Positions 2,386 to 19,028 of a DNA stretch of 20,979 nucleotides are shown here, piece after piece. Position 1 is the first letter of the stretch. Every line of letters starts with the position of its first letter. The DNA is from a virus. The notes below the pieces were generated by a model that was not told where the DNA came from, did not search any database, and was given only the letters and a program-made list of their open reading frames with translations. The stretch spans positions 1-20,979 of IMG/VR virus record IMGVR_UViG_3300048033_000633; one strand, written 5' to 3'. The translations under genes and the position numbers were made by a program.

Positions 2386-2919
2386 TTATGGACAACCGTA
2401 ATTTCCAACAAAAGCGTTTCCATTCCATTGACGAACCGGTGCAACACCGCCGTTCGAATCTTCATAATAGAATCCTGCCGCCGCCGGTACACAAGACCCG
2501 CCGCCTTGGTTTCGATATAACTGCGTTGAACTTGTCCAACTTGAACTGTTTGTGTAATAAGTTCTTTGAATCTGTGAACAAGGATCACCACCTAAAGTTG
2601 TTGCATATCCTAAAGTTCTAGCCGTAAGCGTTGAACAAGACAAACCGTAATCGTGATCGTATCCGCGCCATTCAGACATTGCGTGTGGTTTTGAACTATC
2701 CGGATAGTTTACCCCGTTTGTATTTGTACCTTCAAAATTCTGAAAAGTTTCTGCTAAATCTAACAAGCTGATCGGCGTATAAGGCGTGCTTGTAGAACCA
2801 TAATTGTCAAATTCTTTTTCCCTAGCTATTCCACGCAAAGATATTTCGCCAAGACTAGGAACAATCGCCCAACTGATTCCAGACCCTAACCCAATTAAAA
2901 CATCAAATAAATCAAACAT
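2386..2919 (-). CDS. Putative tail tip or receptor-binding protein
   Basis: A 177-residue protein whose start overlaps the end of the large fibre gene by 8 bases. Residues about 23-32 (SLGEISLRGIAREK) and 50-58 (ISLLDLAETF), then MSEWRGYDHDYG near residue 81-92, follow the ISLsDia...MSeWrGY pattern I associate with distal tail or adhesin-like proteins of Bacteroidota phages. The C-terminal half is rich in Ser, Thr, Tyr and Gly with five Cys (C95, C113, C143, C176 among them), suggesting a compact, possibly disulphide-bonded or metal-binding head. Partnering with the fibre is inferred from the overlap. Exact role uncertain. Confidence 0.55.
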   Translation of the reverse strand: MFDLFDVLIGLGSGISWAIVPSLGEISLRGIAREKEFDNYGSTSTPYTPISLLDLAETFQNFEGTNTNGVNYPDSSKPHAMSEWRGYDHDYGLSCSTLTARTLGYATTLGGDPCSQIQRTYYTNSSSWTSSTQLYRNQGGGSCVPAAAGFYYEDSNGGVAPVRQWNGNAFVGNYGCP

Positions 2920-5900
2920 TAAGCTTTTCTTTTAATTCATCAATTTGTTTTTGTTGGTCTTTGATTGCTTCAACTAAAACGGCAACCATCTTTTCGTAAT
3001 CTACGGTTTTATATTCTGTTTCACCATCGCCAACAAAAGGCAATTTTTGATCGCTTACAATTTCCGGAATTACCTGCTCGACTTCTTGCGCAATAAACCC
3101 AATATCTTTTTTTCCTTTTCGACCGCCATCGTTCCAAATATATTCTACACCCCGAAGCGATTTAACTTTTTCTAGCGCCGAATCAATCGTTGATACATCG
3201 TCTTTTAGTCGTTGATCTGAAGGTGTAGTTGAAAAAGCAATGATATCATTTGCGGCGTGGAATTTTCCGTTTGAATCCATTCGGAAACGTTCAACCGGAT
3301 TGCTTCCGTCGCGCATCCAAAATTGTAAAGAACCGACAATGCTTCCGGCATAATAAGCGCGTATTTGCGCGCGGTGGTGTTGCCCATCTGATCCATTTGT
3401 CGAAAATCCAATACCCGCCCAATTCGAATTATTTTGATTCGTGTTTATTAAGAATAAGGTATCATTATAATTTGTACCAGAATTTGCGTTTGAATGTTCT
3501 ACCCCTGCACCATATTGGCTACCTGATTGAACGGTAAAGTTTCCATAAATCGCGTTCGGATATCCTACATATACTTGTTTTGAAGAATTTATTCTTAATG
3601 CTATATTATTACCACCTTCATAACCATCCCTGCTAAATCTAAAAGCATTTGCATTAAAAAGGTGTTCCCCGCTACTTGCGTATTGTCTTGTTTCCCAAGA
3701 ACCGATATTTGTGCCATCGTGTCCAAAATATAAATAGTTTCCACCGCGAATTGCCGCTACCCCATTAATATCAAGCGCAGTTCCGGAAGTCGCTGACGTT
3801 GTATTTATTCCCGTGGTGCTAGTATTGACAATAAAATCAGGATTTGAATCTTTATTTCCATTTACATACGCAATCCATTGGTTATTTCTTGCATCGTATA
3901 AACCTAACTTTCTTGCGGTTCCTGCAACCGGATAAAACTTCATTCTTACATTGTAATCATCTACACCTGAAGTTCTTTGAACTTGGAATCCCCAATTTGT
4001 ATCTATTGACCTTGTTTGGTTATTGCTAATTGCGTAAAGACCTGAATTATAAGTACCATCACCAAATCCTATTTCTTTAGTGTCTGATTTGATAATAAAC
4101 GAAGGGTATGTATCACCTGCTGAAAGTAGCAAGTTATTAGTAGCGTAAACTGCATAGTCATTCAGGTAAGTTGAACTATATGCCCATTGACCGTTTCCTA
4201 ATCCGCCGACAAACGTGCTTCCATTATAAAGCCTAAACGCCGCCGTTGTTGCAGTTTGGTCTATAAATCCATTTACTTGTAAAGGCTGACTTGTAGAATT
4301 TGAAGTTTGCCCAATAAGCACCTGACCACCTGAAAGGATAGTCATATTTCTTGTAGCCGTTCCGTTGGTATAAAAATATAATTCGCCATTAGCGCCACCG
4401 ACCGCCGATTGAACATTGTAGCTTGTATCGGTAAACAATACGGAATTATAGACTTCCATATCATAATAAACTCGAAGCGATCTAATTGACTGTTTAGTTG
4501 GATTGATTTCTACCCTACCATTTGATCCTTTTATTTTTAATCTTTCAACAAGCGTTCCAGACGTGTTGCAATTTCTGAAAGTGATATCAGAATAAACATC
4601 GTTATTACCTTGATATAAATTATCAATATAAAGTTGGGCATCGCCGGTTGTATAAATAAATCGCCCACCAAGGGTAGCGTTGTTTTGATATCTAGCAAGC
4701 AATCCAATCGTTTGGCTATCTGCCGTACTTTGAACATCTACTAAAGCATTAGTTCCGCGAACGGTAAGTTGGTTGTCAGGGTCATCGCGGTTAATTCCTA
4801 CATATCCATTATCAGCATCTATTCGCAATCTTTCGGTATCTGAAGCGGCAATACCTGAACTTTTAGTTCTTACTGTAAAATGCCCACCATAGTCGCCGTT
4901 ATCAATTACCCTAATCGTTGCTCCTGCATTAGCAAACCCTGCTTGTGTTACGCTATAAGTGTTAAATCCTACATCTACATAATTACCATTACCTCCCTGT
5001 GAATTTTCAAAGAAAGCGCCATATCCGCTACTTGTTCTTTTTGTGTGAATTGGTGCAATAGGCGTTGAAGTATCAATCCCAAGTCCGGTATCCGAAGTAT
5101 ATAATTGCAACCCACCTGCAAGCGTAAGACCACCTTTTGCGGCATATCCACCGCGCCAACTAAAAACAAAAGGCGTTCTTGCGGCGCTAATTGAATCAGA
5201 AACCAAAGAAGCTTCCCATGCAGTAATTGTTGAATCGCTATAAAAAGTACTTCTATTGTAAGTTCCTGATCCGTTGCCGTATAGATTAATTGCCGAAGCG
5301 GCATCTATTTCTAAAGTACCTGAAACCCTTACGCCGCTATTTGTTATTACCGGTGCATATAATCTAATTGAACCAAGCGTATTCTGAATACCAAAATCAG
5401 TATCGCCACCTGAACCAAATCCTACCCATCCGCGTTCATTTCCGCCGGAATCTTTGTAAGAAATATATGAAGTAATTGCCGCGCCAGTCGAATCGGTATC
5501 TTTTAATTCAATAATAGGTGCAGTAGAATCAATGTACAATCTAGTACTTAATCTTGCCGACTTTGCAGTTATATCACCCGCACCTGATATTTTTACTACT
5601 TCGTTAGCTAAATAATCTGTATAAGTTTTTTTGTTTCTAAAAATCCAAGTATCGCCTTCTTCAATATCATCAACAACTTCAAATATATATCGAACATCGT
5701 TTGTAACGCCTGCTTCAGCATACATTCGAATCCCATCGTTATCCCCTGCGCCTTGCTGAAACATATAAGTAGGAACGGTTGAAACGCCGTTTCCGTAAGT
5801 TGTACCAACGGGATTTTGCGGCAAGTTTATTGTGCCTTTGATATCTAAATATCCATTGGCGCCAATATTAAATATATCTGTTCCGCCGCTTTTAAATTCA

Positions 5901-8635
5901 TAAACATTTCCGGTACCGGTAATTGTACCTTCGGCGTTCATATTGAATTGCATCTTTTCACCGACTACCGTTCCACCTGCGCGTATATACCCAATATTTG
6001 AAGCCGTTCCGTTTCCATCTGCGTCAAAATTCCAGACTAATCCCCTTGCACCCGTATCGGTTGCATCAATTCCAAAAATAATATCAGCCGACCCGATATC
6101 AAGATTCGCGTCTGATAAGTCGATTGTTCCGCTTACAAATAAACTTCCATCTATTGTAAGGTCATTTAAAATTCGAACGTCTGCATCCGTATCAACGCCA
6201 AGGGATTCAAAGCGCATAACATTTGACCAAGTATCGGAACTGCTAATATGCTTCGCAAAAGTTAAATCATAAGCGCCGCTAATCATCGCGTATCTTGCGC
6301 CATCTACATCACCTATTTGAACCGCCGCCGCGCGTGATGCACTTGAACCATAAGCGCCCAAATGAACCCAATCCCTAGCGCTTGAACCTGCAATCGAAGT
6401 ATTTTCATCGCTAACAAACCAATCTTTAGCAACAACTTTTCCTTGAACGGTAAGATCATCTTCGGTAAGATTCATTACTTCCGAACCTGCTCGATACCAT
6501 TTATAATTACGATGCGAATGGAACCAAAGATGCGAATCTTCGACACCCATTGAATACCAAGTTGCGCCATCGGTAGCGTGTTCGTAAAAATTAATTCTTG
6601 TACCTAAAGTATGATCCGAAGTATCAGGCGCGTTTACGCTTCCATTCCCACGAATAACATTTAGATAGCTTTCGAAAGTTGCAGAATTGTCGCCATCTAA
6701 TCGAAGCGCGGTTGTTGCTGAAGCGCCATCGTAAGTTTGAAACGATAAACTATAATTGTTTACCAAGCCTTCAACAATTCTAGCATCGCCATTTGCCCAA
6801 TCTAACATTCCACCAGAAGGCAGATTGTATTCTATTGCAGTCATTTCCCCAACGGTAGAAATATTTCCGCTTGAAGAAACGACCAAGGAATTTGAAGGCG
6901 CGCCATTGTTTAAGATAAAAACATCTGAACCTGCGGTAGCATCCCTTATCTTGAAAATATCAAGATTTTGATCGTTTTCTAAATCCCATCTTTGACCGGC
7001 TGCGGTTGTCAATATTCTAACCCGATCAAGTGTATTTCCTTGGGTATTATTTATAACAAGGTCTAAATTTTGAACAGACCCATTTTGAACAGTTAGACCG
7101 GTAAAAGTTCCCGTGCCACCTGAATAATTTCTGCTAGAATCAATAACGGTAGTTCCGGCAATTTCAAGATTTCCTGAAGCAATATTTACATCCGAATCAA
7201 CTCGTAGAATTTCCGTTCCGTTTTGATTTAAAATAAACGATCCGCTATATTTTGCAGAAATTACTGACCAATCCAAATTTGCTTCAGCGCCACCAATATA
7301 AAGCGTTTGTGTAGCATCGGATGAAGGTCTTAAATAAGACGTGTCGCGATTAAAAACAACGCCAAATCCCCGAATTTCTGTTGAAGAACTATCTGAAAAA
7401 AATACGGACAAAATGCTATTTGCCGTTCCATCGCCTACCGAAATATCATTTGTTGTTGTAAATCCATTATCGGTAACGTATTGAAGATCAAAATCCGTGG
7501 CGTGCTTATTATCTACGGTATCAGCATTTCCTGAAATATCACCAGTCAAATTACCTACAAAATTAGCCGCAACTAAATCTTCTGTTCCTAAAGTCCATCG
7601 ATCGTTTGTTTCATCCCATAAAAAAGAAACATTTGCAGAACTTCCCCTTTTTACTTCAATTCCTGCATCTTCAGTAGGTGCAGTTACGCCATCAATATCA
7701 GCATTCAACGTAATAATTGCATCGCCAATATTAAGATTTGTCGTATCAATAAAAGTTGTCGTTCCGGAAACAGTCAAGTTTCCATTGACAACCAAATCGT
7801 TTGAATTTTCCCATCTGCTATTTGAAGCGTTATAAACAAGGAATTGATTATTTGCCGGACTGCTTAAATAAACATCGTGAAGCATTCCAAGGTAATAACC
7901 ATTTTGGGCGCGTATAAAAAGCGTTCCGTTGTTGGCGTGGCTATTTATTACAATAGCAACTTCAAGATCAAGCGCAGGTGCCGCAGGTGGCGTAGTTTGC
8001 CAATATCCGGCAGTCGAAGAAGAAACGTAAAGCGTTTGCCCTTCAGAATAAGCTGAAGTATTCAATCCGCGAATCTTTCCGAAAGTTGTTACCTTACCAT
8101 CTTCGCCGTTAGGAATATCTTCGGTGGTAACCCCAAGAAAATATTTTGCTTCGATCGAACCGTCTGCGATCATAGGCGCGACTGTTAAACGCCCACTTGC
8201 ACCTAGCGTTCCAGTAACATATACCGGCGTTCCATCGTTGATTGTCGAACCGGATTGATTCTTCACATGAACGTGCATTTCTTGTCCTAGCTGAAGAACT
8301 GCGCCATTCTGAACAACGTCAATCGTTTCTTCGTCTGTATTCCAAGACATCAATCCTTGCGTTCCTGATCCGCCGGTTAAGCGAAGCGAAGAAGCCGTAA
8401 TCGAACTTGAAGCATCAAGCGATTGCGTTTTAATATTATTTGAAACGGTAAGGGTGTAATTTGAATCGGGTGTTGATCCGATACCAACGCGCGCCGTTGA
8501 AATCCAAAGCGCAGATTCATTACCTAGACCATCACTTATTCGATCAGGTGTTGCAGATAAAGAACTATTGTCGCCAATTTTTAAAAGTGAATTGTAGGTA
8601 TCTTTGACCTTTAAGCCGGTTAAATCAGTAGCCAT
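2912..8635 (-). CDS. Giant tail fibre with C-terminal S74 intramolecular chaperone
   Basis: A 1907-residue structural protein, the largest gene here. An N-terminal attachment region (about 1-280) is followed by many modules of beta-strand-rich repeats such as LTVSGTTTFIDTTNLNIGDA and LTIDGSLFVSGTIDLSDANL, typical of trimeric beta-helical fibres. The last 102 residues are a peptidase S74 domain: SDQRLK with S1806 and K1811 spaced as the Ser-Lys dyad of the endosialidase-type chaperone, then GVEYIWND, IGFIAQEVE and a terminal helix (VEAIKDQQKQIDELKEKLNV). The chaperone trimerises the fibre and then cleaves itself off just before S1806. Glycan or surface recognition is the likely role; no depolymerase active site was identified. 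Confidence 0.9.
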   Translation of the reverse strand: MATDLTGLKVKDTYNSLLKIGDNSSLSATPDRISDGLGNESALWISTARVGIGSTPDSNYTLTVSNNIKTQSLDASSSITASSLRLTGGSGTQGLMSWNTDEETIDVVQNGAVLQLGQEMHVHVKNQSGSTINDGTPVYVTGTLGASGRLTVAPMIADGSIEAKYFLGVTTEDIPNGEDGKVTTFGKIRGLNTSAYSEGQTLYVSSSTAGYWQTTPPAAPALDLEVAIVINSHANNGTLFIRAQNGYYLGMLHDVYLSSPANNQFLVYNASNSRWENSNDLVVNGNLTVSGTTTFIDTTNLNIGDAIITLNADIDGVTAPTEDAGIEVKRGSSANVSFLWDETNDRWTLGTEDLVAANFVGNLTGDISGNADTVDNKHATDFDLQYVTDNGFTTTNDISVGDGTANSILSVFFSDSSSTEIRGFGVVFNRDTSYLRPSSDATQTLYIGGAEANLDWSVISAKYSGSFILNQNGTEILRVDSDVNIASGNLEIAGTTVIDSSRNYSGGTGTFTGLTVQNGSVQNLDLVINNTQGNTLDRVRILTTAAGQRWDLENDQNLDIFKIRDATAGSDVFILNNGAPSNSLVVSSSGNISTVGEMTAIEYNLPSGGMLDWANGDARIVEGLVNNYSLSFQTYDGASATTALRLDGDNSATFESYLNVIRGNGSVNAPDTSDHTLGTRINFYEHATDGATWYSMGVEDSHLWFHSHRNYKWYRAGSEVMNLTEDDLTVQGKVVAKDWFVSDENTSIAGSSARDWVHLGAYGSSASRAAAVQIGDVDGARYAMISGAYDLTFAKHISSSDTWSNVMRFESLGVDTDADVRILNDLTIDGSLFVSGTIDLSDANLDIGSADIIFGIDATDTGARGLVWNFDADGNGTASNIGYIRAGGTVVGEKMQFNMNAEGTITGTGNVYEFKSGGTDIFNIGANGYLDIKGTINLPQNPVGTTYGNGVSTVPTYMFQQGAGDNDGIRMYAEAGVTNDVRYIFEVVDDIEEGDTWIFRNKKTYTDYLANEVVKISGAGDITAKSARLSTRLYIDSTAPIIELKDTDSTGAAITSYISYKDSGGNERGWVGFGSGGDTDFGIQNTLGSIRLYAPVITNSGVRVSGTLEIDAASAINLYGNGSGTYNRSTFYSDSTITAWEASLVSDSISAARTPFVFSWRGGYAAKGGLTLAGGLQLYTSDTGLGIDTSTPIAPIHTKRTSSGYGAFFENSQGGNGNYVDVGFNTYSVTQAGFANAGATIRVIDNGDYGGHFTVRTKSSGIAASDTERLRIDADNGYVGINRDDPDNQLTVRGTNALVDVQSTADSQTIGLLARYQNNATLGGRFIYTTGDAQLYIDNLYQGNNDVYSDITFRNCNTSGTLVERLKIKGSNGRVEINPTKQSIRSLRVYYDMEVYNSVLFTDTSYNVQSAVGGANGELYFYTNGTATRNMTILSGGQVLIGQTSNSTSQPLQVNGFIDQTATTAAFRLYNGSTFVGGLGNGQWAYSSTYLNDYAVYATNNLLLSAGDTYPSFIIKSDTKEIGFGDGTYNSGLYAISNNQTRSIDTNWGFQVQRTSGVDDYNVRMKFYPVAGTARKLGLYDARNNQWIAYVNGNKDSNPDFIVNTSTTGINTTSATSGTALDINGVAAIRGGNYLYFGHDGTNIGSWETRQYASSGEHLFNANAFRFSRDGYEGGNNIALRINSSKQVYVGYPNAIYGNFTVQSGSQYGAGVEHSNANSGTNYNDTLFLINTNQNNSNWAGIGFSTNGSDGQHHRAQIRAYYAGSIVGSLQFWMRDGSNPVERFRMDSNGKFHAANDIIAFSTTPSDQRLKDDVSTIDSALEKVKSLRGVEYIWNDGGRKGKKDIGFIAQEVEQVIPEIVSDQKLPFVGDGETEYKTVDYEKMVAVLVEAIKDQQKQIDELKEKLNV

Positions 8636-11133: not shown

Positions 11134-11459
11134 TAGATTATCTTCACCGCTTTTATTGTAGTCATAAAATCTTGCTTCGAATCAAAAAAGTCTGTGATGC
11201 GGTACGTGTCTGTATCTGATTCGATTTGTAACAAATCGTCAAATTGAATATCGTCCGCTGTTTTTTTGCGAATCAACAATTCAATATCGTTATGAAGGGT
11301 ACGTTGCCCGTTTTCAGTTTTGACTTCACCGCCTAGTTCTTTCTTATAAGCCCATATAGTCGCGATATCTGACGTTTCGGTAGTTGTACCCCCGTAGCCA
11401 TCAGAAGTCTCGGTAAATCGCTTTATTGTTACCCTGGTATTTAATTTACCCGCATCCAT
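11133..11459 (-). CDS. Head-tail adaptor / head closure protein
   Basis: A 108-residue beta-barrel protein of the SPP1 gp16 / HK97 gp7 head-tail joining type. It opens with MDAGKLNTRVTIKRF, followed by DGYGGTTTETSDIATIWAYK (about residues 20-39); the xGxLnxRVtI..p....D.yGg....w....wA pattern is diagnostic. Later strands (LLIRKKTADDIQFDDLLQIE; YRITDF) match the family. The protein closes the connector after DNA packaging. It shares one base with the stop of the connector gene and one with the start of gp10. Confidence 0.88.
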   Translation of the reverse strand: MDAGKLNTRVTIKRFTETSDGYGGTTTETSDIATIWAYKKELGGEVKTENGQRTLHNDIELLIRKKTADDIQFDDLLQIESDTDTYRITDFFDSKQDFMTTIKAVKII

Positions 11460-11974
11460 TAAACAAACATTGATTTGTAGCTTGATAAAATGCTTTTAAC
11501 ACTTGTAGGTATTTCGTTTGATGCGCCACCTACAACGCTTGCGAAATCAGATCGGTTGTCATAGTACGTTGAAACAAGTTGTAGTATCGCTTGCTTCAAA
11601 AGGCCATCAGATAGACCAGTCGTAGCGTAAGTAACTTTTACTTGTTCAGCTGACCCGCCATCTAGTTCAATCGTTTCGTTATCCAAACCTAATACCGTGT
11701 ATTCAGCTGTTTCGCCTTCTACGGTAACCGCAGAAATAGAACTGACTGGCGCAAATGGAATATCAAAGACCCCGTTTGTTTTATCCACGTAGTACGTTCG
11801 ATTCTTTGCTACAATATCGCGTGAAATATAATTTTCGCACCATATACGAGCTTGTTCAATCATTCTACCTATGATAGCATCATCGGCAGAAGTGTCAATA
11901 CGTACGTAATCTTTTACGTCTTGGGTAGTTACGATTTCGCTTCCAGTAACGGAATTAACTTTGATCTGTCGCAT
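11459..11974 (-). CDS. Head-tail connector protein, gp6-like
   Basis: A 171-residue, mostly helical protein of the HK97 gp6/SPP1 gp15 type, forming a ring under the portal. The characteristic opening is an early helix with VTTQDVKDYVRIDTSADDAI (about residues 15-34) then IGRMIEQARIWCENYISRDI, the L-K.hLRid..dDd..i..li.aA...ve.y motif. The middle is beta (TYYVDKTNGVFDIPFAPVSS) and the C-terminus a helix bundle (LLKQAILQLVSTYYDNRSD). Its start lies 20 bases inside the end of the preceding small gene. Confidence 0.88.
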   Translation of the reverse strand: MRQIKVNSVTGSEIVTTQDVKDYVRIDTSADDAIIGRMIEQARIWCENYISRDIVAKNRTYYVDKTNGVFDIPFAPVSSISAVTVEGETAEYTVLGLDNETIELDGGSAEQVKVTYATTGLSDGLLKQAILQLVSTYYDNRSDFASVVGGASNEIPTSVKSILSSYKSMFV

Positions 11975-12170
11975 CTTTTGTTTCGTTTTCGAGCTTTAAT
12001 TCTTTTGTTTCAATCTCGGCTTTTTCTTCTTTGTCTGCCTTCTTTGCAACCTCTGAACCCCAACCCATACGAAGCCATTTATCTGCGTGTTGTGAAGGTA
12101 CTTCAACCGTAGCGCCAACTTTTACGCCCAGGTCTTTTGCGACTTTTTCGTTTTTAACCTTGAATTTCAT
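11955..12170 (-). CDS. Small protein at head of connector operon
   Basis: A 71-residue protein, not recognised by name. The N-terminal half (MKFKVKNEKVAKDLGVKVGA, then VEVPSQHADKWLRMGWGSEV) looks like a small folded domain. The C-terminal half is a highly charged Lys/Glu stretch (KKADKEEKAEIETKE) likely to be disordered. Small proteins of this kind commonly sit between capsid and connector genes in Bacteroidota phages, with a possible role as head accessory or connector partner. It is the first gene after the island terminator and overlaps the connector gene by 20 bases. Confidence 0.65.
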   Translation of the reverse strand: MKFKVKNEKVAKDLGVKVGATVEVPSQHADKWLRMGWGSEVAKKADKEEKAEIETKELKLENETKDATDQS

Positions 12171-12187
12171 ATCGTGTTGATTTTATC

Positions 12188-12195
12188 CAAAGATA
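12188..12195 (-). promoter_or_regulatory. Candidate -7 box for the connector/neck operon
   Basis: TATCTTTG on the minus strand fits TAnnTTTG exactly and lies 17 bases before the ATG of the 71-residue gene. It begins inside the U-run of the terminator just upstream, so a promoter would restart transcription where the previous unit ends. A TTG lies 14 bases upstream, shorter than the usual 17-21. Confidence 0.45.
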
Positions 12196-12227
12196 AAAAA
12201 AATGCGCCACAAGGATTTGTAGCGCAT
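12195..12227 (-). terminator. Rho-independent terminator after the nuclease gene
   Basis: Minus strand ATGCGCTACAA, loop ATCC, TTGTGGCGCAT gives an eleven-base-pair stem with one T-G wobble, followed by seven or more T. It sits 27 bases after the nuclease stop codon. A strong, canonical intrinsic terminator. Confidence 0.9.
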
Positions 12228-12237
12228 CTTCCGTTAA

Positions 12238-12254
12238 CCAAACAACTAAACTAT
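12238..12254 (+). repeat. Island junction repeat, copy 1
   Basis: Reads CCAAACAACTAAACTAT, then ATTATGAA, just after the nuclease gene stop. The decamer AACTAAACTA (12244-12253) recurs at 12698-12707 in the same orientation and at 13538-13547 inverted. With copy 2 it flanks the nuclease gene and the upstream terminator as a near-identical direct repeat with one extra A. Confidence 0.6.
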
Positions 12255-12643
12255 TATGAAGAAGAATAATTGAACGTAAAGTTATTGAAAAAAATTGAAT
12301 TCTTTCCATGCAATGATAAACGAATCGCTTTCATTGATCCCGTGTTCGGAAATATGAAGAAGCCACCAAAGTATTCAGAATAAACAGCGAAGAAGTTCAC
12401 GTTTTCTTTTGTGTAGAATTGGGTATTCTTTTCAAGTGGCGCGTGAACCGATTTGCGGTGTTCTAACGGCGTTTTAGAAGTGTATTTGATTTGTACCTTA
12501 TAAATGGCATCGTGCGTATCTACAATCGCATCATAAGGGCTTGAATCCAGTAAAGGCATCGATACAATGTACCCGCGGTTTGTACATTCCGTTGCGAAGC
12601 GATATTCTGCCGCGCAACCCGTGTAGTTGCAGTTAGGTTTCAC
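12254..12643 (-). CDS. PD-(D/E)XK-type nuclease, stand-alone
   Basis: A 129-residue protein. Start is GTG; the ATG overlapping it (ATGTGA) runs straight into a stop. The fold signature reads GCAAEYRFATECTNRGYIVS (about residues 9-28), then SPYDAIVDTHDAIYKVQIKY (35-54): conserved E13, D38 and Q51-x-K53 in the E...D...QxK order of PD-(D/E)XK endonucleases (PF11645-like). Further on comes NFFAVYSEYFGGFFIFP, the strand pair typical of this group. Possible roles: Holliday-junction or repair nuclease, free-standing homing-type nuclease, or anti-competitor/defence enzyme. It is alone between two terminators, not part of the neighbouring operons, and may depend on leaky read-through since no clear promoter is seen. 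Confidence 0.75.
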   Translation of the reverse strand: MKPNCNYTGCAAEYRFATECTNRGYIVSMPLLDSSPYDAIVDTHDAIYKVQIKYTSKTPLEHRKSVHAPLEKNTQFYTKENVNFFAVYSEYFGGFFIFPNTGSMKAIRLSLHGKNSIFFNNFTFNYSSS

Positions 12644-12659
12644 ATCTTAAAGTTAAACA

Positions 12660-12686
12660 AAAAAGAAAAAGGGCGCCGAAGCGCCC
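12660..12686 (-). terminator. UUCG-tetraloop terminator after the mini-gene operon
   Basis: Minus strand GGGCGC, loop TTCG, GCGCCC, then TTTTTCTTTTTT. The UUCG loop and GC-rich six-base-pair stem with a long U-run make a textbook terminator, 30 bases after the last mini-gene stop and 17 before the nuclease GTG. Confidence 0.93.
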
Positions 12687-12691
12687 GATTT

Positions 12692-12708
12692 CAAACAAAC
12701 TAAACTAT
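12692..12708 (+). repeat. Island junction repeat, copy 2
   Basis: Reads CAAACAAACTAAACTAT, matching copy 1 with one extra A, between the stop of the last mini-gene and the terminator hairpin. The same plus-strand sequence continues with ATTATGAAAAC (12716-12726), which also equals the start-codon region of the gene at 20598-20864. Confidence 0.6.
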
Positions 12709-12716
12709 AAATCACA

Positions 12717-12866
12717 TTATGAAAACGCGATGCGGTAATCGTCTTCACAATCGACTGAACAATAATATCCAGACGTGTAAAGACCGCAATTCGAGCAACG
12801 AGTTAAGTACTCGCCGTGATTGCCAATCGAATTGTAATAATCTTCAAGCGGGTCGTTGTTGTGCAT
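12717..12866 (-). CDS. CxxC mini-protein B (49 residues)
   Basis: Starts at the ATG at 12866. A longer in-frame reading exists but its first part is antisense-like sequence without a plausible start. It begins MHNNDPLEDYYNSIGN and contains RCSNCGLYTSGYYCSVDC (about residues 23-40): two CxxC-like pairs in a zinc-ribbon arrangement, CxxC-x9-CxxxC. It resembles mini-protein A (13236-13364), which has HNDP near the N-terminus and CPECG...YCSTGC. It overlaps the previous gene by 23 bases and ends before the UUCG terminator. Probably a zinc-binding adaptor; function unknown. Confidence 0.7.
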   Translation of the reverse strand: MHNNDPLEDYYNSIGNHGEYLTRCSNCGLYTSGYYCSVDCEDDYRIAFS

Positions 12867-12996
12867 TCCTATTACTTTTAATGATTTGTTCAACGGCTTC
12901 TTTTTTGGCTTTGCGCCCCAAAATTGAAATGTAAGGAAGATTGCAGTTGTCGCCCGTAGCAATAATTTCATTCAATGTATCAATCAAATTGTCCAT
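12844..12996 (-). CDS. Soluble mini-protein (50 residues)
   Basis: ATG at 12996 lies inside the last codons of the membrane mini-protein before it (13-base overlap), and its stop lies 23 bases inside mini-protein B. Sequence MDNLIDTLNEIIATGDNCNL, then ILGRKAKKEAVEQIIKSNRN, suggests two amphipathic helices with a basic middle. I do not recognise it. The nested overlaps favour translational coupling in a compact operon. A longer upstream reading from a TTG at 13095 is rejected because it runs through the membrane gene in another frame. Confidence 0.6.
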   Translation of the reverse strand: MDNLIDTLNEIIATGDNCNLPYISILGRKAKKEAVEQIIKSNRNAQQRPA

Positions 12997-13109
12997 AACA
13001 ATTTCAGTATTAAAAGGAACGCCATAAAGCCTAAAACCATTCCCATTGTAAGAATGAAAATCATTTCGACAATAAAGCGAACGTTTCTTTTCCAATTTTT
13101 AAACTTCAT
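12984..13109 (-). CDS. Single-helix membrane mini-protein 2 (41 residues)
   Basis: ATG shares its A with the preceding TGA (TGATG). Sequence MKFKNWKRNVRFIVEMIFIL then TMGMVLGFMAFLLILKLLWT: a basic N-terminus, then one long hydrophobic helix (about residues 12-40). The positive N-terminus implies an inner-membrane protein with the N-terminus in the cytoplasm. Its reading frame is hidden under longer, unlikely frames. No known family. Coupling with mini-protein 1 suggests a pair. Confidence 0.6.
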   Translation of the reverse strand: MKFKNWKRNVRFIVEMIFILTMGMVLGFMAFLLILKLLWTI

Positions 13110-13231
13110 CAGAAAAACAGATTTCTGATAAATATTACAACTAAACAAATGGTCATCAAACCAAGTCCAAAACTAGCCCCGTAGTTAAGGCTTTTAATCA
13201 GTTGTTTTTCTCGTTTTTCAAAATTTTTCAT
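13109..13231 (-). CDS. Single-helix membrane mini-protein 1 (40 residues)
   Basis: ATG at 13231 follows the stop of CxxC mini-protein A by 4 bases (TAAGAAGATG). It encodes MKNFEKREKQLIKSLNYGAS then FGLGLMTICLVVIFIRNLFF: a charged cytoplasmic N-terminus (1-14) and one membrane helix (about 17-38). The stop codon overlaps the next ATG. The bases are also covered by a longer TTG-started frame which would fuse it to an out-of-frame part of mini-protein A; I reject that. Possible roles include superinfection exclusion, or holin-like regulation, by size and topology only. Confidence 0.6.
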   Translation of the reverse strand: MKNFEKREKQLIKSLNYGASFGLGLMTICLVVIFIRNLFF

Positions 13232-13235
13232 CTTC

Positions 13236-13364
13236 TTAATGATAAGCGGATTCCTTGCATCCAGTTGAACAATAATCTTCATAGTGTGGTATTTCCTTAC
13301 CACATTCAGGGCATTCGTGATACCAGCCATCAAGCTGTGGATCGTTGTGCGCGATATAAAACAT
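13236..13364 (-). CDS. CxxC mini-protein A (42 residues)
   Basis: First gene of the mini-operon, starting 25 bases after the TATATTTG box. Translation begins MFYIAHNDPQLDGWYHECPE and contains CPECGKEIPHYEDYCSTGC (residues 18-36): CxxC then CxxxC, a miniature zinc ribbon. It shares HNDP near the N-terminus, the spacing between Cys pairs and the YCSxxC end with mini-protein B, so the two look like paralogues flanking the two membrane genes. Function unknown; zinc-dependent protein or nucleic-acid contact is possible. Confidence 0.68.
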   Translation of the reverse strand: MFYIAHNDPQLDGWYHECPECGKEIPHYEDYCSTGCKESAYH

Positions 13365-13389
13365 AATATCAAGTTTTGGTTAAACTACC

Positions 13390-13421
13390 CAAATATAAAA
13401 TTTTTTTTTGGATTGTAAAAA
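13390..13421 (-). promoter_or_regulatory. Promoter of the mini-gene operon
   Basis: Minus strand TATATTTG (13397-13390) matches TAnnTTTG. A TTTTTAC element (13421-13415) lies 17 bases upstream as a weak -33 box. The start codon of CxxC mini-protein A is 25 bases downstream. Because the capsid terminator lies just upstream, the island needs its own promoter, which supports the call. About 50 bases further upstream GTGAA-CGTA-TTCAC (13475-13455 area) forms a short dyad that could be an operator. Confidence 0.55.
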
Positions 13422-13494
13422 CTTTTTTTATTCGCAAGTAAATCTTTTGAAGTTCAGTGAATACGTTCACCAAAAACCCGAATATTTGGGGAAT

Positions 13495-13518
13495 AAAAAA
13501 CCCCGCCGTTTGGCAGGG
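13495..13518 (-). terminator. Terminator after the major capsid gene
   Basis: Minus strand CCCTGCC, loop AAAC, GGCGGGG, then TTTTTT. Seven base pairs with one T-G wobble. On the plus strand the same hairpin is followed by TTTCTTTTT, so it could act in both directions. It lies about 30 bases after the capsid stop. Confidence 0.9.
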
Positions 13519-13528
13519 TTTCTTTTTG

Positions 13529-13550
13529 AAGAACTATTAGTTTAGTTCTT
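13529..13550 (-). repeat. Stem-loop abutting the capsid stop codon
   Basis: An eight-base-pair perfect inverted repeat AAGAACTA and TAGTTCTT with a six-base loop directly after the TAA of the capsid gene, ahead of the terminator hairpin. The arm and loop contain the inverted third copy of the AACTAAACTA decamer (13538-13547). It may protect the abundant capsid mRNA 3' end. Confidence 0.65.
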
Positions 13551-14730
13551 ATGGTGTTTCAAGCGCCGCTTTAGCCGTAGCGAATGATCCGTTTACGAAT
13601 GCATTCGGTAGGTAATTAGTAAGGGCGATACGCTCCTGGATTCTTACCGTTACGAAACCATCACGTACGTTTGTTCCATCTTCACGGTGGAAAGTAACCG
13701 CTAGGTTGTCGCGTGTCCAAAGTTGTGAACCTTGTGCGAAGTTACCCGCTAAGAAAGTACCCGCTGCGATTGCAGTATTTACGATAACTGGAACGCCCAT
13801 GAATGAAGGCTGAAGTCCAGCGTAAACCTGATCTTTTAGGTAATTGTTTTGCGTGTCTTTTAACAATAGGATTTTGTGGAAATCGCTAGGGTTAAGTACA
13901 ATGTAATTAGCACGATACTCGCTTAATGCAAGTTGGTTAAGCGCCACAACTAAAACGTCAAACTCGTTAGCTGATTCGATTGCGTCAGCAAAACCACCTT
14001 CAGCGAAGTCAGCCGCGTCAGTAATGATACCTGAAAGGTTTGGCGAAGTTCCGTTTCCGTTAAGGATTTGGTCATCTTCTTCAGCCATTAATTTTTCAGC
14101 CGCACGAACAGAAATATAAGAAGCTAATGCAGGTGTGTCTGCAAGCATTTCTTCAGAAATTCTGAAGTAAGCTCCAATTTTCTGTACGTTTGAATCAGTT
14201 GCAGTAAGATCGAAATCCGACTGTGCTAGGGTAGCCCCCTCGGCTTTGGCCGCAGTTCCGTCAGCGTATCCGCTTTCTTTTACGAAACGTACAACATCAG
14301 ACGAAGTTGAACCTACTGGAATGATTGAACGCATATGCAGTTGTCTTGCAGGATCATACTTGATTCCAGCAACACGATCAGCGGCGATAACTTCACCTGT
14401 GAAATCTGCCGCAGTAGTCATATCTGCCTTGATTTCGAATGAAGCACCGTTTGACTGACCTTTAAGCATTCCGTCAAGCGCACCAGCTTTTACTACTTCG
14501 ATTAACGAAGATTTGAATGATTTAGGTTGTGAAGCTTCGAATTGTTTTTTACGAGCCACTTCCATTTCGTCCATTCTTGCGTTGAAAGTCTCTGTAAGGT
14601 TTTTGATTTCACCTTTAAGCATTTCGTCAGCTTTTCCGGTTGCTGATTCAACAGCTTGCCCGTAAGCCTTCTCTAATTTTGAATCGATCAAGTTACCTAA
14701 CTCGTCGATTTGGTTTTTAAAATCTTCCAT
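13549..14730 (-). CDS. Major capsid protein, HK97 fold
   Basis: A 393-residue capsid subunit. Residues 1 to about 75 form a charged coiled coil (IDELGNLIDSKLEKAYGQAV; EIKNLTETFNARMDEMEVAR), the scaffolding delta domain normally cut off by the prohead protease. The mature part follows: FTGEVIAADRVAGIKYDPAR, RSIIPVGSTSSDVVRFVKES (P-domain, E-loop region), RISEEMLADTPALASYISVR (spine helix) and DDQILNGNGTSPNLSGI, all standard HK97-like landmarks. No separate scaffold gene is present, which matches the built-in delta domain. Starts one base after the protease stop. Two stem-loops follow its stop codon. Confidence 0.93.
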   Translation of the reverse strand: MEDFKNQIDELGNLIDSKLEKAYGQAVESATGKADEMLKGEIKNLTETFNARMDEMEVARKKQFEASQPKSFKSSLIEVVKAGALDGMLKGQSNGASFEIKADMTTAADFTGEVIAADRVAGIKYDPARQLHMRSIIPVGSTSSDVVRFVKESGYADGTAAKAEGATLAQSDFDLTATDSNVQKIGAYFRISEEMLADTPALASYISVRAAEKLMAEEDDQILNGNGTSPNLSGIITDAADFAEGGFADAIESANEFDVLVVALNQLALSEYRANYIVLNPSDFHKILLLKDTQNNYLKDQVYAGLQPSFMGVPVIVNTAIAAGTFLAGNFAQGSQLWTRDNLAVTFHREDGTNVRDGFVTVRIQERIALTNYLPNAFVNGSFATAKAALETP

Positions 14731-15442: not shown

Positions 15443-15456
15443 AATTACTTAATTTT

Positions 15457-16392
15457 TTATAAGTCATATTCGTCTGGCTTCGGGTACATCACTACCACAC
15501 AACGACAATTAACTCTGTTCGCTGGACTTGCCGTAGCTTCGCCAGCTGTGTGCATTGCTTCACCATTAACGATAAAAGGTTCGTCGTATGGTTTTTCTTG
15601 TTTATTTACTGCGCCGTGCGCATCCCTTTGCCAACCATCCATCGTTGTAATCCATTGCTTTAGTAGCTGTTCTTTAGGAAACATTGTGATAGCGCTCTGA
15701 TTGATGGCGTAGTTGCTTATCGTTGTACCTTCGGTTTTTACGATACGCTTGGCTTGCCATCGGCTTATCTGTTTGAACTTATTATTCAAAATCCGCGCTT
15801 TTTCATTTACGCCTTTTGACATAAAATCAGGATCACCCATTAACGCCCTAGTAATCATCTTCAGCTTGCCTAGCGCAGTACCCTGGATAAGCTTGATTTT
15901 TGAAGCTGAATAAATTTTAGCATAGTCAAGAAACTGCTGTTCCCAGATTCCTAAAAGCGCCTTTTCGTTTGATGATAACGACTTGATTTGAAAACGATTT
16001 ACATTTCTAAAGTACCAAGCGGCAAACTCTAAACCCATTCCCGTAAACATTCCTACCATCAAGTCCTCTATATCAGGGTAACTGAATAGTCCGATTTCGT
16101 TTATATGGTTTGTTTGAAGAAATTGTTCAATACCTTTTTGGTACTGCGAGTAATAATATCGTGCAAACTTTCGTGAATAGTTTCGTTCTAGTATATCGCG
16201 CTTACGTTCAAATCCAAACTTGAAACGCTCTACGTCATACGTTGAAGCTTTTTTTACAGGTCGGTACAGACTTGCACATACCGCAAGCCTTTGATCTTGA
16301 CTTGAAAATTCTCTTTGAACTTCCACATCGGTAATACACCGGTCTAAAAAATCGCTTTCGCTTTCGTTTGTTCTTGGCTTCGGTAGCGGCAT
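15457..16392 (-). CDS. MuF-like head morphogenesis protein with N-terminal small domain
   Basis: A 311-residue protein. Residues 1 to about 47 form a separate motif, PLPKPRTNESESDFLDRCIT then LAVCASLYR, a two-Cys small domain that I have seen attached to protease or portal genes in Bacteroidota phages. The C-terminal part (about 190-311) is the MuF domain: KRIVKTEGTTISNYAINQSA, KQWITTMDGWQRDAHGAVN, and the classic ending NRVNCRCVVVMYPKP. MuF proteins bind the portal inside the head and are needed for morphogenesis; they sometimes deliver effectors. Starts 2 bases after the portal stop. No toxin domain is fused here. Confidence 0.88.
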   Translation of the reverse strand: MPLPKPRTNESESDFLDRCITDVEVQREFSSQDQRLAVCASLYRPVKKASTYDVERFKFGFERKRDILERNYSRKFARYYYSQYQKGIEQFLQTNHINEIGLFSYPDIEDLMVGMFTGMGLEFAAWYFRNVNRFQIKSLSSNEKALLGIWEQQFLDYAKIYSASKIKLIQGTALGKLKMITRALMGDPDFMSKGVNEKARILNNKFKQISRWQAKRIVKTEGTTISNYAINQSAITMFPKEQLLKQWITTMDGWQRDAHGAVNKQEKPYDEPFIVNGEAMHTAGEATASPANRVNCRCVVVMYPKPDEYDL

Positions 16393-16394
16393 CG

Positions 16395-18134
16395 TTATTC
16401 ATTTTCGGCGATTCGTTTAGCCCAAGATGCCATAGCCTTGCCGCCCCAAAGGTTGTAAGCTACATATCCTTTATCTTTCCAGGGTTCGCCTTTGTATTGA
16501 TCTGAAATAACCGCGTTATCTTCGTGGCGACTTAAAAAGCTATGAACGCGCTTTACCGTATCTAATGAAAGCGGTTCGCGCTTTGCTAATTGGTTTGCTC
16601 TTTGCCAACCGGTTGAAGTACCAGCGGTAACTACATCACGGCCGTATTTGTCGCGCCATTCAAGCATACGTTTAGCGTTATTGGTTGCGCCTTGCGGGTA
16701 GTTTGAATAGCTTTCAGCTTTGTATTCTTTCTGTTCTTCTTCATCTTCTTCTTCGTTTTGAACTGGCTCTGGTTTTGGCAACTCGATTGGTTCCGAAATC
16801 ATATCCATATCATTATCTAGCGGAATAAGATTCGCGGGTACAAAATACGAGTCCATTTGTTCGTTTTCTTCATCGATACCGTAGTTCATTACATCGCGCT
16901 TCTCGTTCGGCGTGATCCACCAAGCTTGGTAAAGTTGATTAACGACTTTCTCGGTTTCCTCTTGCATTTCAGGAATCGCCGTGAAGTCATATTCGATGCA
17001 AATCTTGTCGCCATATTTAGGCGCCAACCAACGATTCAATTCATCTTGAATCTTCATCAATTCAGGAATAACCGCCATCTGATAAAGCGCTTTTTTCGCT
17101 TCTTTCATATTGTTGTAAGTCGAAGCGTCGGTATTGTTTAGCATTTGAACAGGCACGCCGTAGATATTACAAAGGTCTTTGACTGAAGCGTTGTATTGTT
17201 CGATAAGTGAAAGATCTGAAGCATTCAACCCGAAGTTTATCCACGATAACTTTTTCGGCGTGATAAGAACATCACCAGCGTTACCGCTACCTTGGTGTTG
17301 CCTTCTAAACTTGTCTTTTAATTGTTGCGCTTGTACTTCGTTAATATCGCCTTCTTCAGACATCAATACACCTCTAGCGGTTTGGTTTTGTAAATACTTA
17401 ACACCAGTTGTAACGGCTTCGTTGTTGGTAGTAAGCGATCGGAAACCTGCTCGAAGTGGCGACTGACCGTAAAGGTGCGAACCAGTACCATCATAATACG
17501 GATTGAAATCTTTGATATGACAAATCATTTCCGCCGGAATATCATAAGTTCCGTTGTATTCCAAACGATAACTTTTCACCGGTTCCATAATCCCGTTAGA
17601 AATAATTTCCATCACTTGCGAAGGCATCACATACATTTCCGTAAACTTACCCGCGTTGATCCCCGTATCAGGTGAAATTCCGTAGATATATCCGTTACCC
17701 GTTAGTTTTCTAAAGGCGATAAGTTCAGATATCCAAGACGCATACGATTGCGCTGAATTAGGGTTTTCCAAAAGTTGCTGAAGCTCGTGGCCTTCTAGTT
17801 CAACCAGCGCGTTCTTTTTTAGAAGCTGCGTTTTGTACAACGCAGTCGGATCGGCAACACCTGATTGCATCGCCTTATATCTTTTGTATTCGCTTTCCTT
17901 TGTTTTCTCGTAGATCGTAAAAGGTATGGTTGTCGCCGCCTTGGTGATAATATTTATCAACGAATAAATCGTAGCGTTTTTGCGATAACCTTCCGTAATA
18001 TAGTTATCATCGTTTTCTGTATTCCAAAGCACCGAATGACCCAGGTGGTTGTAAATTGCTTTGTTATATTCCGCCGCTGTTTGTGTGGCGTTCTTGGTTA
18101 GTATATTTCGGAATCGATCCAGTATTGAAGCCAT
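16395..18134 (-). CDS. Portal protein, HK97 type, with extra C-terminal domain
   Basis: A 579-residue portal, longer than the usual 400-480. Residues 1 to about 440 are the HK97-type portal: ATIYSLINIITKAATTIPFT (54-73), NGYIYGISPDTGINAGKF, DKFRRQHQGSGNAGDVLI, and LIEQYNASVKDLCNIYGVPV followed by QMLNN. The dodecamer forms the DNA entry channel and docks terminase. After an acidic linker (EEEDEEEQKEYK, about 464-475) comes a domain of about 100 residues with YPQGATNNAKRMLEW, GWQRANQLAKREPLS and WGGKAMASWAKRIAE (479-579), a stand-alone pattern also known to me from protease genes of related phages. The domain may bind DNA or terminase; its function is unknown. Confidence 0.9.
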   Translation of the reverse strand: MASILDRFRNILTKNATQTAAEYNKAIYNHLGHSVLWNTENDDNYITEGYRKNATIYSLINIITKAATTIPFTIYEKTKESEYKRYKAMQSGVADPTALYKTQLLKKNALVELEGHELQQLLENPNSAQSYASWISELIAFRKLTGNGYIYGISPDTGINAGKFTEMYVMPSQVMEIISNGIMEPVKSYRLEYNGTYDIPAEMICHIKDFNPYYDGTGSHLYGQSPLRAGFRSLTTNNEAVTTGVKYLQNQTARGVLMSEEGDINEVQAQQLKDKFRRQHQGSGNAGDVLITPKKLSWINFGLNASDLSLIEQYNASVKDLCNIYGVPVQMLNNTDASTYNNMKEAKKALYQMAVIPELMKIQDELNRWLAPKYGDKICIEYDFTAIPEMQEETEKVVNQLYQAWWITPNEKRDVMNYGIDEENEQMDSYFVPANLIPLDNDMDMISEPIELPKPEPVQNEEEDEEEQKEYKAESYSNYPQGATNNAKRMLEWRDKYGRDVVTAGTSTGWQRANQLAKREPLSLDTVKRVHSFLSRHEDNAVISDQYKGEPWKDKGYVAYNLWGGKAMASWAKRIAENE

Positions 18135-18179: not shown

Positions 18180-19028
18180 TTATAACCCGCAGTAACCGGA
18201 ATCACATTCGTTGAAATCATCATCAAATAATTCAAACTGCACGTTCCATTCTTTTATCTGATCATAAGTCATTTCTGAACGCCAATGCGCGTTATTAATG
18301 CTTTCCCGTTCACGTTTGGCAAACCATTCCAGTTTATTCGGGTGCTTATCAAACATCTTTCGAAGTAACATCGGCGTCTTATGAAAACAACCTACACAAT
18401 TATTCATCCAGGCAAAACGTACCGGTTTGTCTTGCCAGTATTGTTCAATTTTGTCTTTGTAAATGTTATCTTCAATCAGCGGAAAATGCGGTTTACGATA
18501 TTTTACATCAACCCATTTGTTACGTCCGTCTTTATGTTTTTCAAACGTAGCTTTAAAAGATTCAAGACCGTTTTCGTCGCAACGATCTAGCATATTATTG
18601 GCACGTCTTGTTTCATTTGCACGAAATCCTATCCTAGTCAATAGCGGTTCGCCTATATTTTCCGCCCACCAATAGAATATTGGTTCAATCTTCATTTCTA
18701 TTGTACAAAACCTCTGCACCTTATTAGGCAAGTAAACCTTTTCTTTTCTTGTTGTTATTTCGTCAAACGTTCGCCCAGTAACCCAGGTAATTTTACGCCC
18801 TATGAATTGTTCAAGGTCTAACATCGTGTAAATTATGGTATCATCTTCTAGCGTACCGATAAAAGGCGCCTGAATACGATCTTCTATTTCTTGACGAAGT
18901 TTTTTATCAGGGAATAAACAAGTACGATCAGAAGTTCGAACTAAAGCAAATACGTCATAATCTGCGGGGTAATTTGCGGCGATATATGAAGAAGTTTTTC
19001 CGCCACTTAATGAATTAAGCTTTTTCAT
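18180..19028 (-). CDS. PP-loop ATPase, PAPS reductase/DndC-like
   Basis: A 282-residue adenine-nucleotide alpha hydrolase. The PP-loop SGGKTS is at residues 8-13, close to the N-terminus, and is followed by DVFALVRTSDRTCL. C108 lies in RFCTIEMKIEP, the CT...K..P motif of the PAPS reductase family. A later GFRANETRRA (134-143) and NNCVGCFHKTP (209-219, C211 and C214) suggest substrate binding and a possible Fe-S or zinc site. Such enzymes activate or transfer sulphur: PAPS reduction, DNA phosphorothioation (DndC) or tRNA thiolation. No DndD/E partners are visible here. It overlaps terL by four bases (ATGA) and precedes the portal, so it is expressed with packaging genes. Exact substrate unknown. 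Confidence 0.8.
   Translation of the reverse strand: MKKLNSLSGGKTSSYIAANYPADYDVFALVRTSDRTCLFPDKKLRQEIEDRIQAPFIGTLEDDTIIYTMLDLEQFIGRKITWVTGRTFDEITTRKEKVYLPNKVQRFCTIEMKIEPIFYWWAENIGEPLLTRIGFRANETRRANNMLDRCDENGLESFKATFEKHKDGRNKWVDVKYRKPHFPLIEDNIYKDKIEQYWQDKPVRFAWMNNCVGCFHKTPMLLRKMFDKHPNKLEWFAKRERESINNAHWRSEMTYDQIKEWNVQFELFDDDFNECDSGYCGL

What the first reader, a model, noticed from the sequence alone, without database searches (positions are those of the whole stretch)
12181..13550. Accessory island of transcriptionally isolated cassettes between capsid and connector genes
Two units, a five-gene mini-operon and a single nuclease gene, sit in the middle of the structural operon, each closed by its own terminator, with a promoter candidate before the first. 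This is the layout of a moron. It interrupts a region where the genes are normally contiguous and is the best candidate for an undescribed system in the window, for example an anti-defence, exclusion or competition function.
Basis: partly seen in the sequence, partly recalled or inferred. Interest (0 to 1): 0.75.

Follow-up and report, generated by a model that had tools for sequence, protein, structure and literature searches.

The report
Swappable accessory-gene slot beside phage capsid gene
Next to their capsid gene, this family of uncultured viruses of (probably) Bacteroidota keeps a small, separately transcribed gene island in which one gene is swapped for unrelated ones between almost identical viruses while a DNA-cutting enzyme always stays, which looks like a new example of the known kind of 'moron' locus that viruses use to carry optional, host-adapting genes.

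Summary
Between the major capsid gene and the head-tail connector lies a 1.4-kb island: five overlapping mini-genes (two zinc-ribbon, two single-TM, one soluble) and a PD-(D/E)XK nuclease, with terminators after capsid, mini-genes and nuclease. In 60 relatives spanning the site the plan recurs, so it is not a recent insertion. The nuclease is present in all of them, has an intact active site, and is about as constrained as the capsid (dN/dS 0.14 vs 0.11); it has the I-Ssp6803I/Hjc fold. What varies is a single-gene slot behind the island promoter: fixed leader/promoter, a small ORF exchanged start-to-stop, and in several clades a fixed terminator. About 30 unrelated families fill it; among 64 phage pairs with 95-99.9% identical capsid genes, the slot gene is unrelated in 50. 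The window carries an EMPTY slot. One slot family sits at 88% identity in an unrelated phage. This is a moron-type accessory hotspot, like the anti-CRISPR region of Mu-like Pseudomonas phages or SPP1 gene 14, not a new system. Counter-defence is the likeliest role of slot genes, but inferred only.

The parts
13549..14730 (-). major capsid protein gene (HK97 fold), left flank of the island
   Evidence: PF05065 E 1e-41, phrog_10
13495..13524 (-). terminator after the capsid gene
   Evidence: fold -20 kcal/mol; equivalent in 56 of 61 loci
13390..13397 (-). -7 box TATATTTG of a Bacteroidota-type promoter; -33 element degenerate in the window, intact in L002, L082 and most relatives
13365..13389 (-). 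position of the accessory slot, empty in this phage (occupied by a 45-135 aa ORF in most relatives, in near relatives followed by its own terminator)
13236..13364 (-). ORF A, 42 aa zinc-ribbon mini-protein
   Evidence: PF09889-like, E 0.001, below cut-off; dN/dS 0.20
13109..13231 (-). ORF B, 40 aa, one predicted TM segment
   Evidence: hydropathy 2.16; homologs in near relatives
12984..13109 (-). ORF C, 41 aa, one predicted TM segment
   Evidence: hydropathy 2.69; homologs in near relatives
12844..12996 (-). ORF D, 50 aa soluble mini-protein
   Evidence: cluster CL9 in 10 loci
12717..12866 (-). ORF E, 49 aa zinc-ribbon mini-protein
   Evidence: cluster CL11, dN/dS 0.22
12671..12686 (-). terminator closing the mini-operon
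   Evidence: equivalent in 45 of 61 loci
12254..12643 (-). PD-(D/E)XK nuclease, 129 aa, I-Ssp6803I-type; present in every relative spanning the site
   Evidence: PF11645, catalytic E13, D38, Q51, K53 invariant, 2ost Z 16.1, dN/dS 0.14
12197..12232 (-). terminator closing the nuclease unit
12188..12195 (-). -7 box TATCTTTG ahead of the connector operon
   Evidence: same place in L002, L003, L005, L008, L015, L049, L063, L082
11459..12170 (-). 71 aa gene (12170..11955) and head-tail connector (11974..11459), right flank
   Evidence: PF05135, phrog_442

Best explanation
It is a fixed accessory (moron) locus of an uncultured lineage of siphoviruses, probably of Bacteroidota. SHOWN: the head gene cluster is split by an independently punctuated island; its first position is an expression slot in which the leader/promoter stays and one small ORF is replaced start codon to stop (in several clades the downstream terminator stays too), while the downstream mini-genes and the nuclease are conserved; sometimes the whole island including the nuclease is replaced as a block. 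INFERRED: slot genes are made from a host-type promoter independently of the late programme, and act as optional host-takeover or counter-defence factors whose value depends on the host's current defences; replacement runs through homologous recombination in the conserved flanks between co-infecting relatives. The nuclease is a constitutive member; most likely it cuts DNA of co-infecting phages and so biases inheritance of the island (marker exclusion or homing-like), with a packaging or junction-resolving role the main alternative. In the window the slot is vacant.
For: Same site occupied in 60 of 60 relatives, nuclease in all. Hotspot profile over 169 pairs: 71% unaligned 200-400 bp after the capsid stop, 0-0.4% in the capsid and protease genes, under 1.2% in the connector region. 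Clean swaps in near-identical phages with breakpoints at the start codon and at the stop/terminator: L009/L013, L024/L025, L053/L060, L002/L082, L047/L048, L064/L065. Slot gene unrelated in 50 of 64 pairs at 95-99.9% capsid identity; about 30 families. Same slot family in distant clades and, at 88%, in an unrelated phage behind its terminase. Block replacement of island plus nuclease: L069/L072. Promoter and terminators recur. Selection on core genes against near-neutral overlapping ORFs as control.
Against: No slot family has a named function; almost none hits PHROGs or Pfam and the one predicted fold gives no clear match. No expression data. A universal, strongly constrained nuclease is unusual for a dispensable or selfish element. 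Counter-defence models were not available; PADLOC holds defence families and gave only weak hits for the window proteins.
Confidence: 0.6

Rival explanations
1. The nuclease is a core DNA-processing enzyme (Holliday-junction resolving or terminase-associated, as HNH proteins are in many packaging machines) that happens to lie beside an accessory slot; it has nothing to do with cassette exchange.
For: Present in all relatives with intact catalytic residues, dN/dS like the capsid, second-best fold match is archaeal Hjc, Z 11.7; in another phage group (L091) a 50% identical nuclease sits directly before the terminase large subunit.
Against: Closest relative by sequence profile and fold is a homing endonuclease; its allele is exchanged with the island as a block; its gene is not next to terminase here.
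Confidence: 0.4
2. The slot genes encode alternative capsid decoration or stability proteins, which often lie next to the capsid gene.
For: Position directly after the capsid gene; small size; decoration genes count as morons in other phages (PMC4378225).
Against: About 30 unrelated families on capsids up to 100% identical at the nucleotide level (L024/L025), separate promoter and terminator, two families look like winged-helix proteins from their sequence (my reading only), one family also in a phage with no homologous capsid.
Confidence: 0.08
3. The island is a superinfection-exclusion module (TM mini-proteins plus nuclease acting together, like T4 Imm/Sp).
For: Conserved single-TM mini-genes next to a nuclease.
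Against: The TM mini-proteins are replaced by unrelated ones between clades while the nuclease stays; nothing tested.
Confidence: 0.12
4. Swaps are artefacts of metagenome assembly.
For: All loci are metagenomic contigs.
Against: The same slot allele recurs in contigs of different samples (CL37 in L009, L010, L012; CL41 in L025, L026, L065) and breakpoints fall on gene boundaries in many independent pairs.
Confidence: 0.03

Closest known systems
Anti-CRISPR region (RGP G) of Mu-like Pseudomonas aeruginosa phages (PMC4378225)
   Same: Fixed site in an otherwise conserved genome; exchangeable ORFs of mostly under 100 codons, most without homologs; a constant companion gene (g9 there, nuclease here); lower GC than surroundings (36% for the mini-operon vs 43% capsid and 39% window)
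   Different: Not a Mu-type phage; companion is a nuclease; single-gene start-to-stop exchange; no anti-CRISPR shown
Morons of lambdoid phages HK97/HK022 and of SPP1 (PMC6316719)
   Same: Extra transcription unit with own promoter and terminator between structural genes; SPP1 ORF 14 lies at the same place, between capsid and head-completion modules
   Different: Here the locus is permanent across the lineage and mainly one position in it turns over
[quoted passage not shown]
   Same: Conserved flanks, very diverse contents
   Different: Those hold anti-phage systems next to cos or integrase; here tiny single genes inside the head cluster
I-Ssp6803I homing endonuclease (2ost, PF11645)
   Same: Fold Z 16.1, profile E 6e-10, E/D/Q/K active-site pattern
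   Different: Free-standing, not in an intron; fixed in all relatives rather than sporadic; cleavage site unknown
Competition endonucleases: gp210 of phage PhiPA3 (PMC11620839) and Skunavirus HNH enzymes (PMC12724721)
   Same: Phage nuclease that could damage co-infecting relatives and drive local exchange
   Different: HNH enzymes with demonstrated activity; none shown here

Membership tests
Moron / accessory hotspot | own promoter and terminator | tested here: met
   terminators in 56/45/30 of 61 loci, promoter in 39 of 61 leaders; in the window only the -7 box is intact
Moron / accessory hotspot | present or absent, or different, at one site in close relatives | tested here: met
   slot gene: unrelated in 50 of 64 close pairs, empty in several
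Moron / accessory hotspot | whole unit is an extra absent from most relatives | tested here: not met
   island and nuclease in all 60 relatives; absent only from distant Muminvirus, capsid 33%. The slot, not the island, is the moron
Moron / accessory hotspot | expression independent of the lytic programme; benefit to phage or host | not testable with these tools
   needs RNA and infection data
PF11645 / I-Ssp6803I-type nuclease | sequence family and fold | tested here: met
   47 bits vs cut-off 26.1; 2ost E 6e-10, Z 16.1 over 124 residues
PF11645 / I-Ssp6803I-type nuclease | intact PD-(D/E)XK-type active site | tested here: met
   E13, D38, Q51, K53 invariant in 24 sequences
Homing endonuclease (functional sense) | sporadic distribution with empty target alleles | tested here: not met
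   no relative lacking the nuclease was found among those spanning the site
Homing endonuclease (functional sense) | site-specific cleavage of the cognate site | not testable with these tools
   needs purified enzyme
Anti-CRISPR locus | member inhibits CRISPR-Cas, or an aca-type regulator is present | tested here: inconclusive
   no HTH companion recognised among core genes; slot families unannotated

The most novel reading that the evidence does not exclude
The universal I-Ssp6803I-type nuclease is the engine of the locus: it cuts relatives at or near this site in mixed infections, so that repair copies the donor island and keeps shuffling slot genes, making a self-propagating reservoir of counter-defence genes in the head operon.
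Probability: 0.2. Interest if true: 0.75.

Novelty: new variant of a known kind. Interest (0 to 1): 0.5.

Why it matters
It gives a compact, searchable marker (capsid gene, promoter, slot, mini-genes, PDDEXK_5 nuclease, connector) that points to about 30 families of small unknown phage proteins under strong turnover, i.e. a list of candidate counter-defence proteins from uncultured Bacteroidota-type viruses, and a testable case of a nuclease tied to a gene-exchange hotspot.

Tried and rejected
TAGTTTAGTT repeats after the two units and the capsid gene: weak (6 hits at one mismatch, 4 of 100 shuffles as many). Structured RNA downstream of the slot in L013: no Rfam family. Known isolates: no DNA match in the phage collection, capsid relatives at most 34%, connector none. 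Host by genome contigs: only one hit, in a bin labelled Woesearchaeota that is probably mis-binned. Profile scan of viral contigs with the nuclease alignment failed for lack of a conserved stretch. Fold search of slot family CL18: best Z 6.0, no significant viral match, uninformative. Integrase: none in 13 viral records, which may be incomplete. An attempt to read TAACTTTG near the nuclease end as a promoter was dropped, since it is coding sequence.

Full report
What is there. The window is an IMG/VR fragment of a siphovirus with all structural genes on the minus strand. Between the capsid gene and the head-tail connector lie five overlapping ORFs of 40-50 codons and a 129-codon nuclease gene, with terminators after the capsid gene, after the mini-operon and after the nuclease. 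A -7 box TATATTTG precedes the first ORF.

Relatives. A scan with the capsid protein found 540 relatives in IMG/VR, of which the best 80 were kept. All 60 that span capsid to connector (plus the window; L084 and L085 duplicate L008 and L003) contain the nuclease at the same place, at roughly 30-91% identity. The gap is 1.1-2.9 kb. The site is also occupied in L093 (capsid 62%) and L101 (65%), but not in the distant Flavobacterium phage snusmum, capsid 33%. The locus is therefore an old, fixed feature of this lineage.

What varies. Clustering the ORFs gives a regular plan: leader, usually one slot ORF, a short TM gene, in some clades one or two more, a second TM gene, a soluble 50-residue gene, the nuclease. 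The slot ORF belongs to about 30 unrelated families over 63 loci (slot clusters were chosen by hand from their position). In near-identical phages the exchange is exact. In L009 and L013 the sequence is conserved up to the start codon, unrelated through the ORF, and identical again from the terminator CCCCCTTCGGGGGG on; in L024 and L025 capsid, nuclease and connector round to 100% identity and the slot differs. Over 169 pairs the slot position is unaligned in 71%, the capsid gene in 0-0.4%. Of 64 pairs with 95-99.9% capsid identity, 50 differ in slot family; these pairs are not independent. L069 and L072 (capsid 98-99%) differ by the whole island, nuclease included, between flanks of 97-100%.

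The window allele. Alignment with L002, L082, L005 and L007 shows that all four carry a slot ORF and a terminator GCCCCCTTCGGGGGGC between the promoter and ORF A, and that the window lacks this segment. L002 and L082, both about 94-95% identical to the window in the capsid protein, hold different slot genes; L082 and L007 share one although their capsids differ by some 20%.

Mobility. The CL18 slot family occurs at 88% identity in L097, a phage without a homolog of this capsid protein, right behind its terminase (by inspection of the ORF at L097:1703-2911), again followed by mini-genes, one with a TM-like stretch and one a zinc ribbon.

Are the mini-genes real? Pairwise dN/dS: capsid 0.11, nuclease 0.14, CL5 0.12, CL4 0.17, ORF A family 0.20, CL7 0.22, ORF E family 0.22, CL1 0.29; overlapping out-of-frame ORFs in the same stretch 0.6-1.35. 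So the mini-genes are translated and constrained. Some slot and small-gene families show weaker constraint on few pairs (CL18 0.85, CL35 0.46, CL14 0.62).

The nuclease. PF11645 (E 3e-12), I-Ssp6803I by profile (E 6e-10) and fold (Z 16.1, rmsd 2.2 over 124 residues; next Hjc at 11.7), model pLDDT 88.6. E13, D38, Q51 and K53 are invariant. It is very probably an active nuclease. Universal presence speaks against a purely selfish homing gene; block exchange speaks for involvement in competition or exchange. A 50% identical relative beside the terminase gene of another phage group (L091) keeps a packaging role open.

How it works. Most likely: a promoter of the Bacteroidota vegetative type (TTG-N16..21-TAnnTTTG in 39 of 61 leaders against 0.9 expected; consensus from general knowledge) drives the slot gene outside the late programme, and slot genes help the phage on particular hosts. 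The pattern matches the anti-CRISPR-bearing region of Mu-like Pseudomonas phages (PMC4378225) and the SPP1 moron between capsid and head-completion genes (PMC6316719). No function was shown here: slot families have almost no annotated relatives and one predicted fold was uninformative. The host assignment to Bacteroidota rests on the promoter type and on the terminase being closest to Bacteroides and Phocaeicola phages.

Verdict. A real, well-supported accessory hotspot; a new variant of a known kind. The window is its least telling member because its slot is empty.

Noticed in passing
window 18180-19028 (-): A phosphoadenosine phosphosulfate reductase family gene (phrog_424, E 4e-20) sits between the terminase large subunit and portal genes: another moron-type gene inside the head cluster.
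   Followed up: partly
window about 15450-18130 (-): The stretch covering the head morphogenesis gene and the end of the portal gene is a second, weaker variable region (16-22% unaligned in close pairs); the portal C-terminus (468-575) matches phrog_2859, suggesting an added domain.
   Followed up: partly
L097:3001-4940: Unrelated phage with the CL18 slot gene after its terminase followed by a mini-gene row including a zinc-ribbon ORF resembling ORFs A and E: the same kind of island at another site.
   Followed up: partly
L009 and L013, between slot terminator and next ORF: About 90 nt of identical, non-coding, possibly structured sequence (GCGCGCTGAAGAAGCTAGGCGGACTGCTGACG...); no Rfam match in L013.
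   Followed up: partly
L091:4717-6325 (also L088-L090, L092 not inspected): Nuclease of the same family encoded directly upstream of, and overlapping, a terminase large subunit in another phage group.
   Followed up: partly
window 2912-8635 (-): 1907-residue tail/fibre protein whose C-terminal end looks like an intramolecular chaperone (SDQRLKDDVSTIDSALEKVKSLRGVEYIWN), from the sequence only.
   Followed up: no
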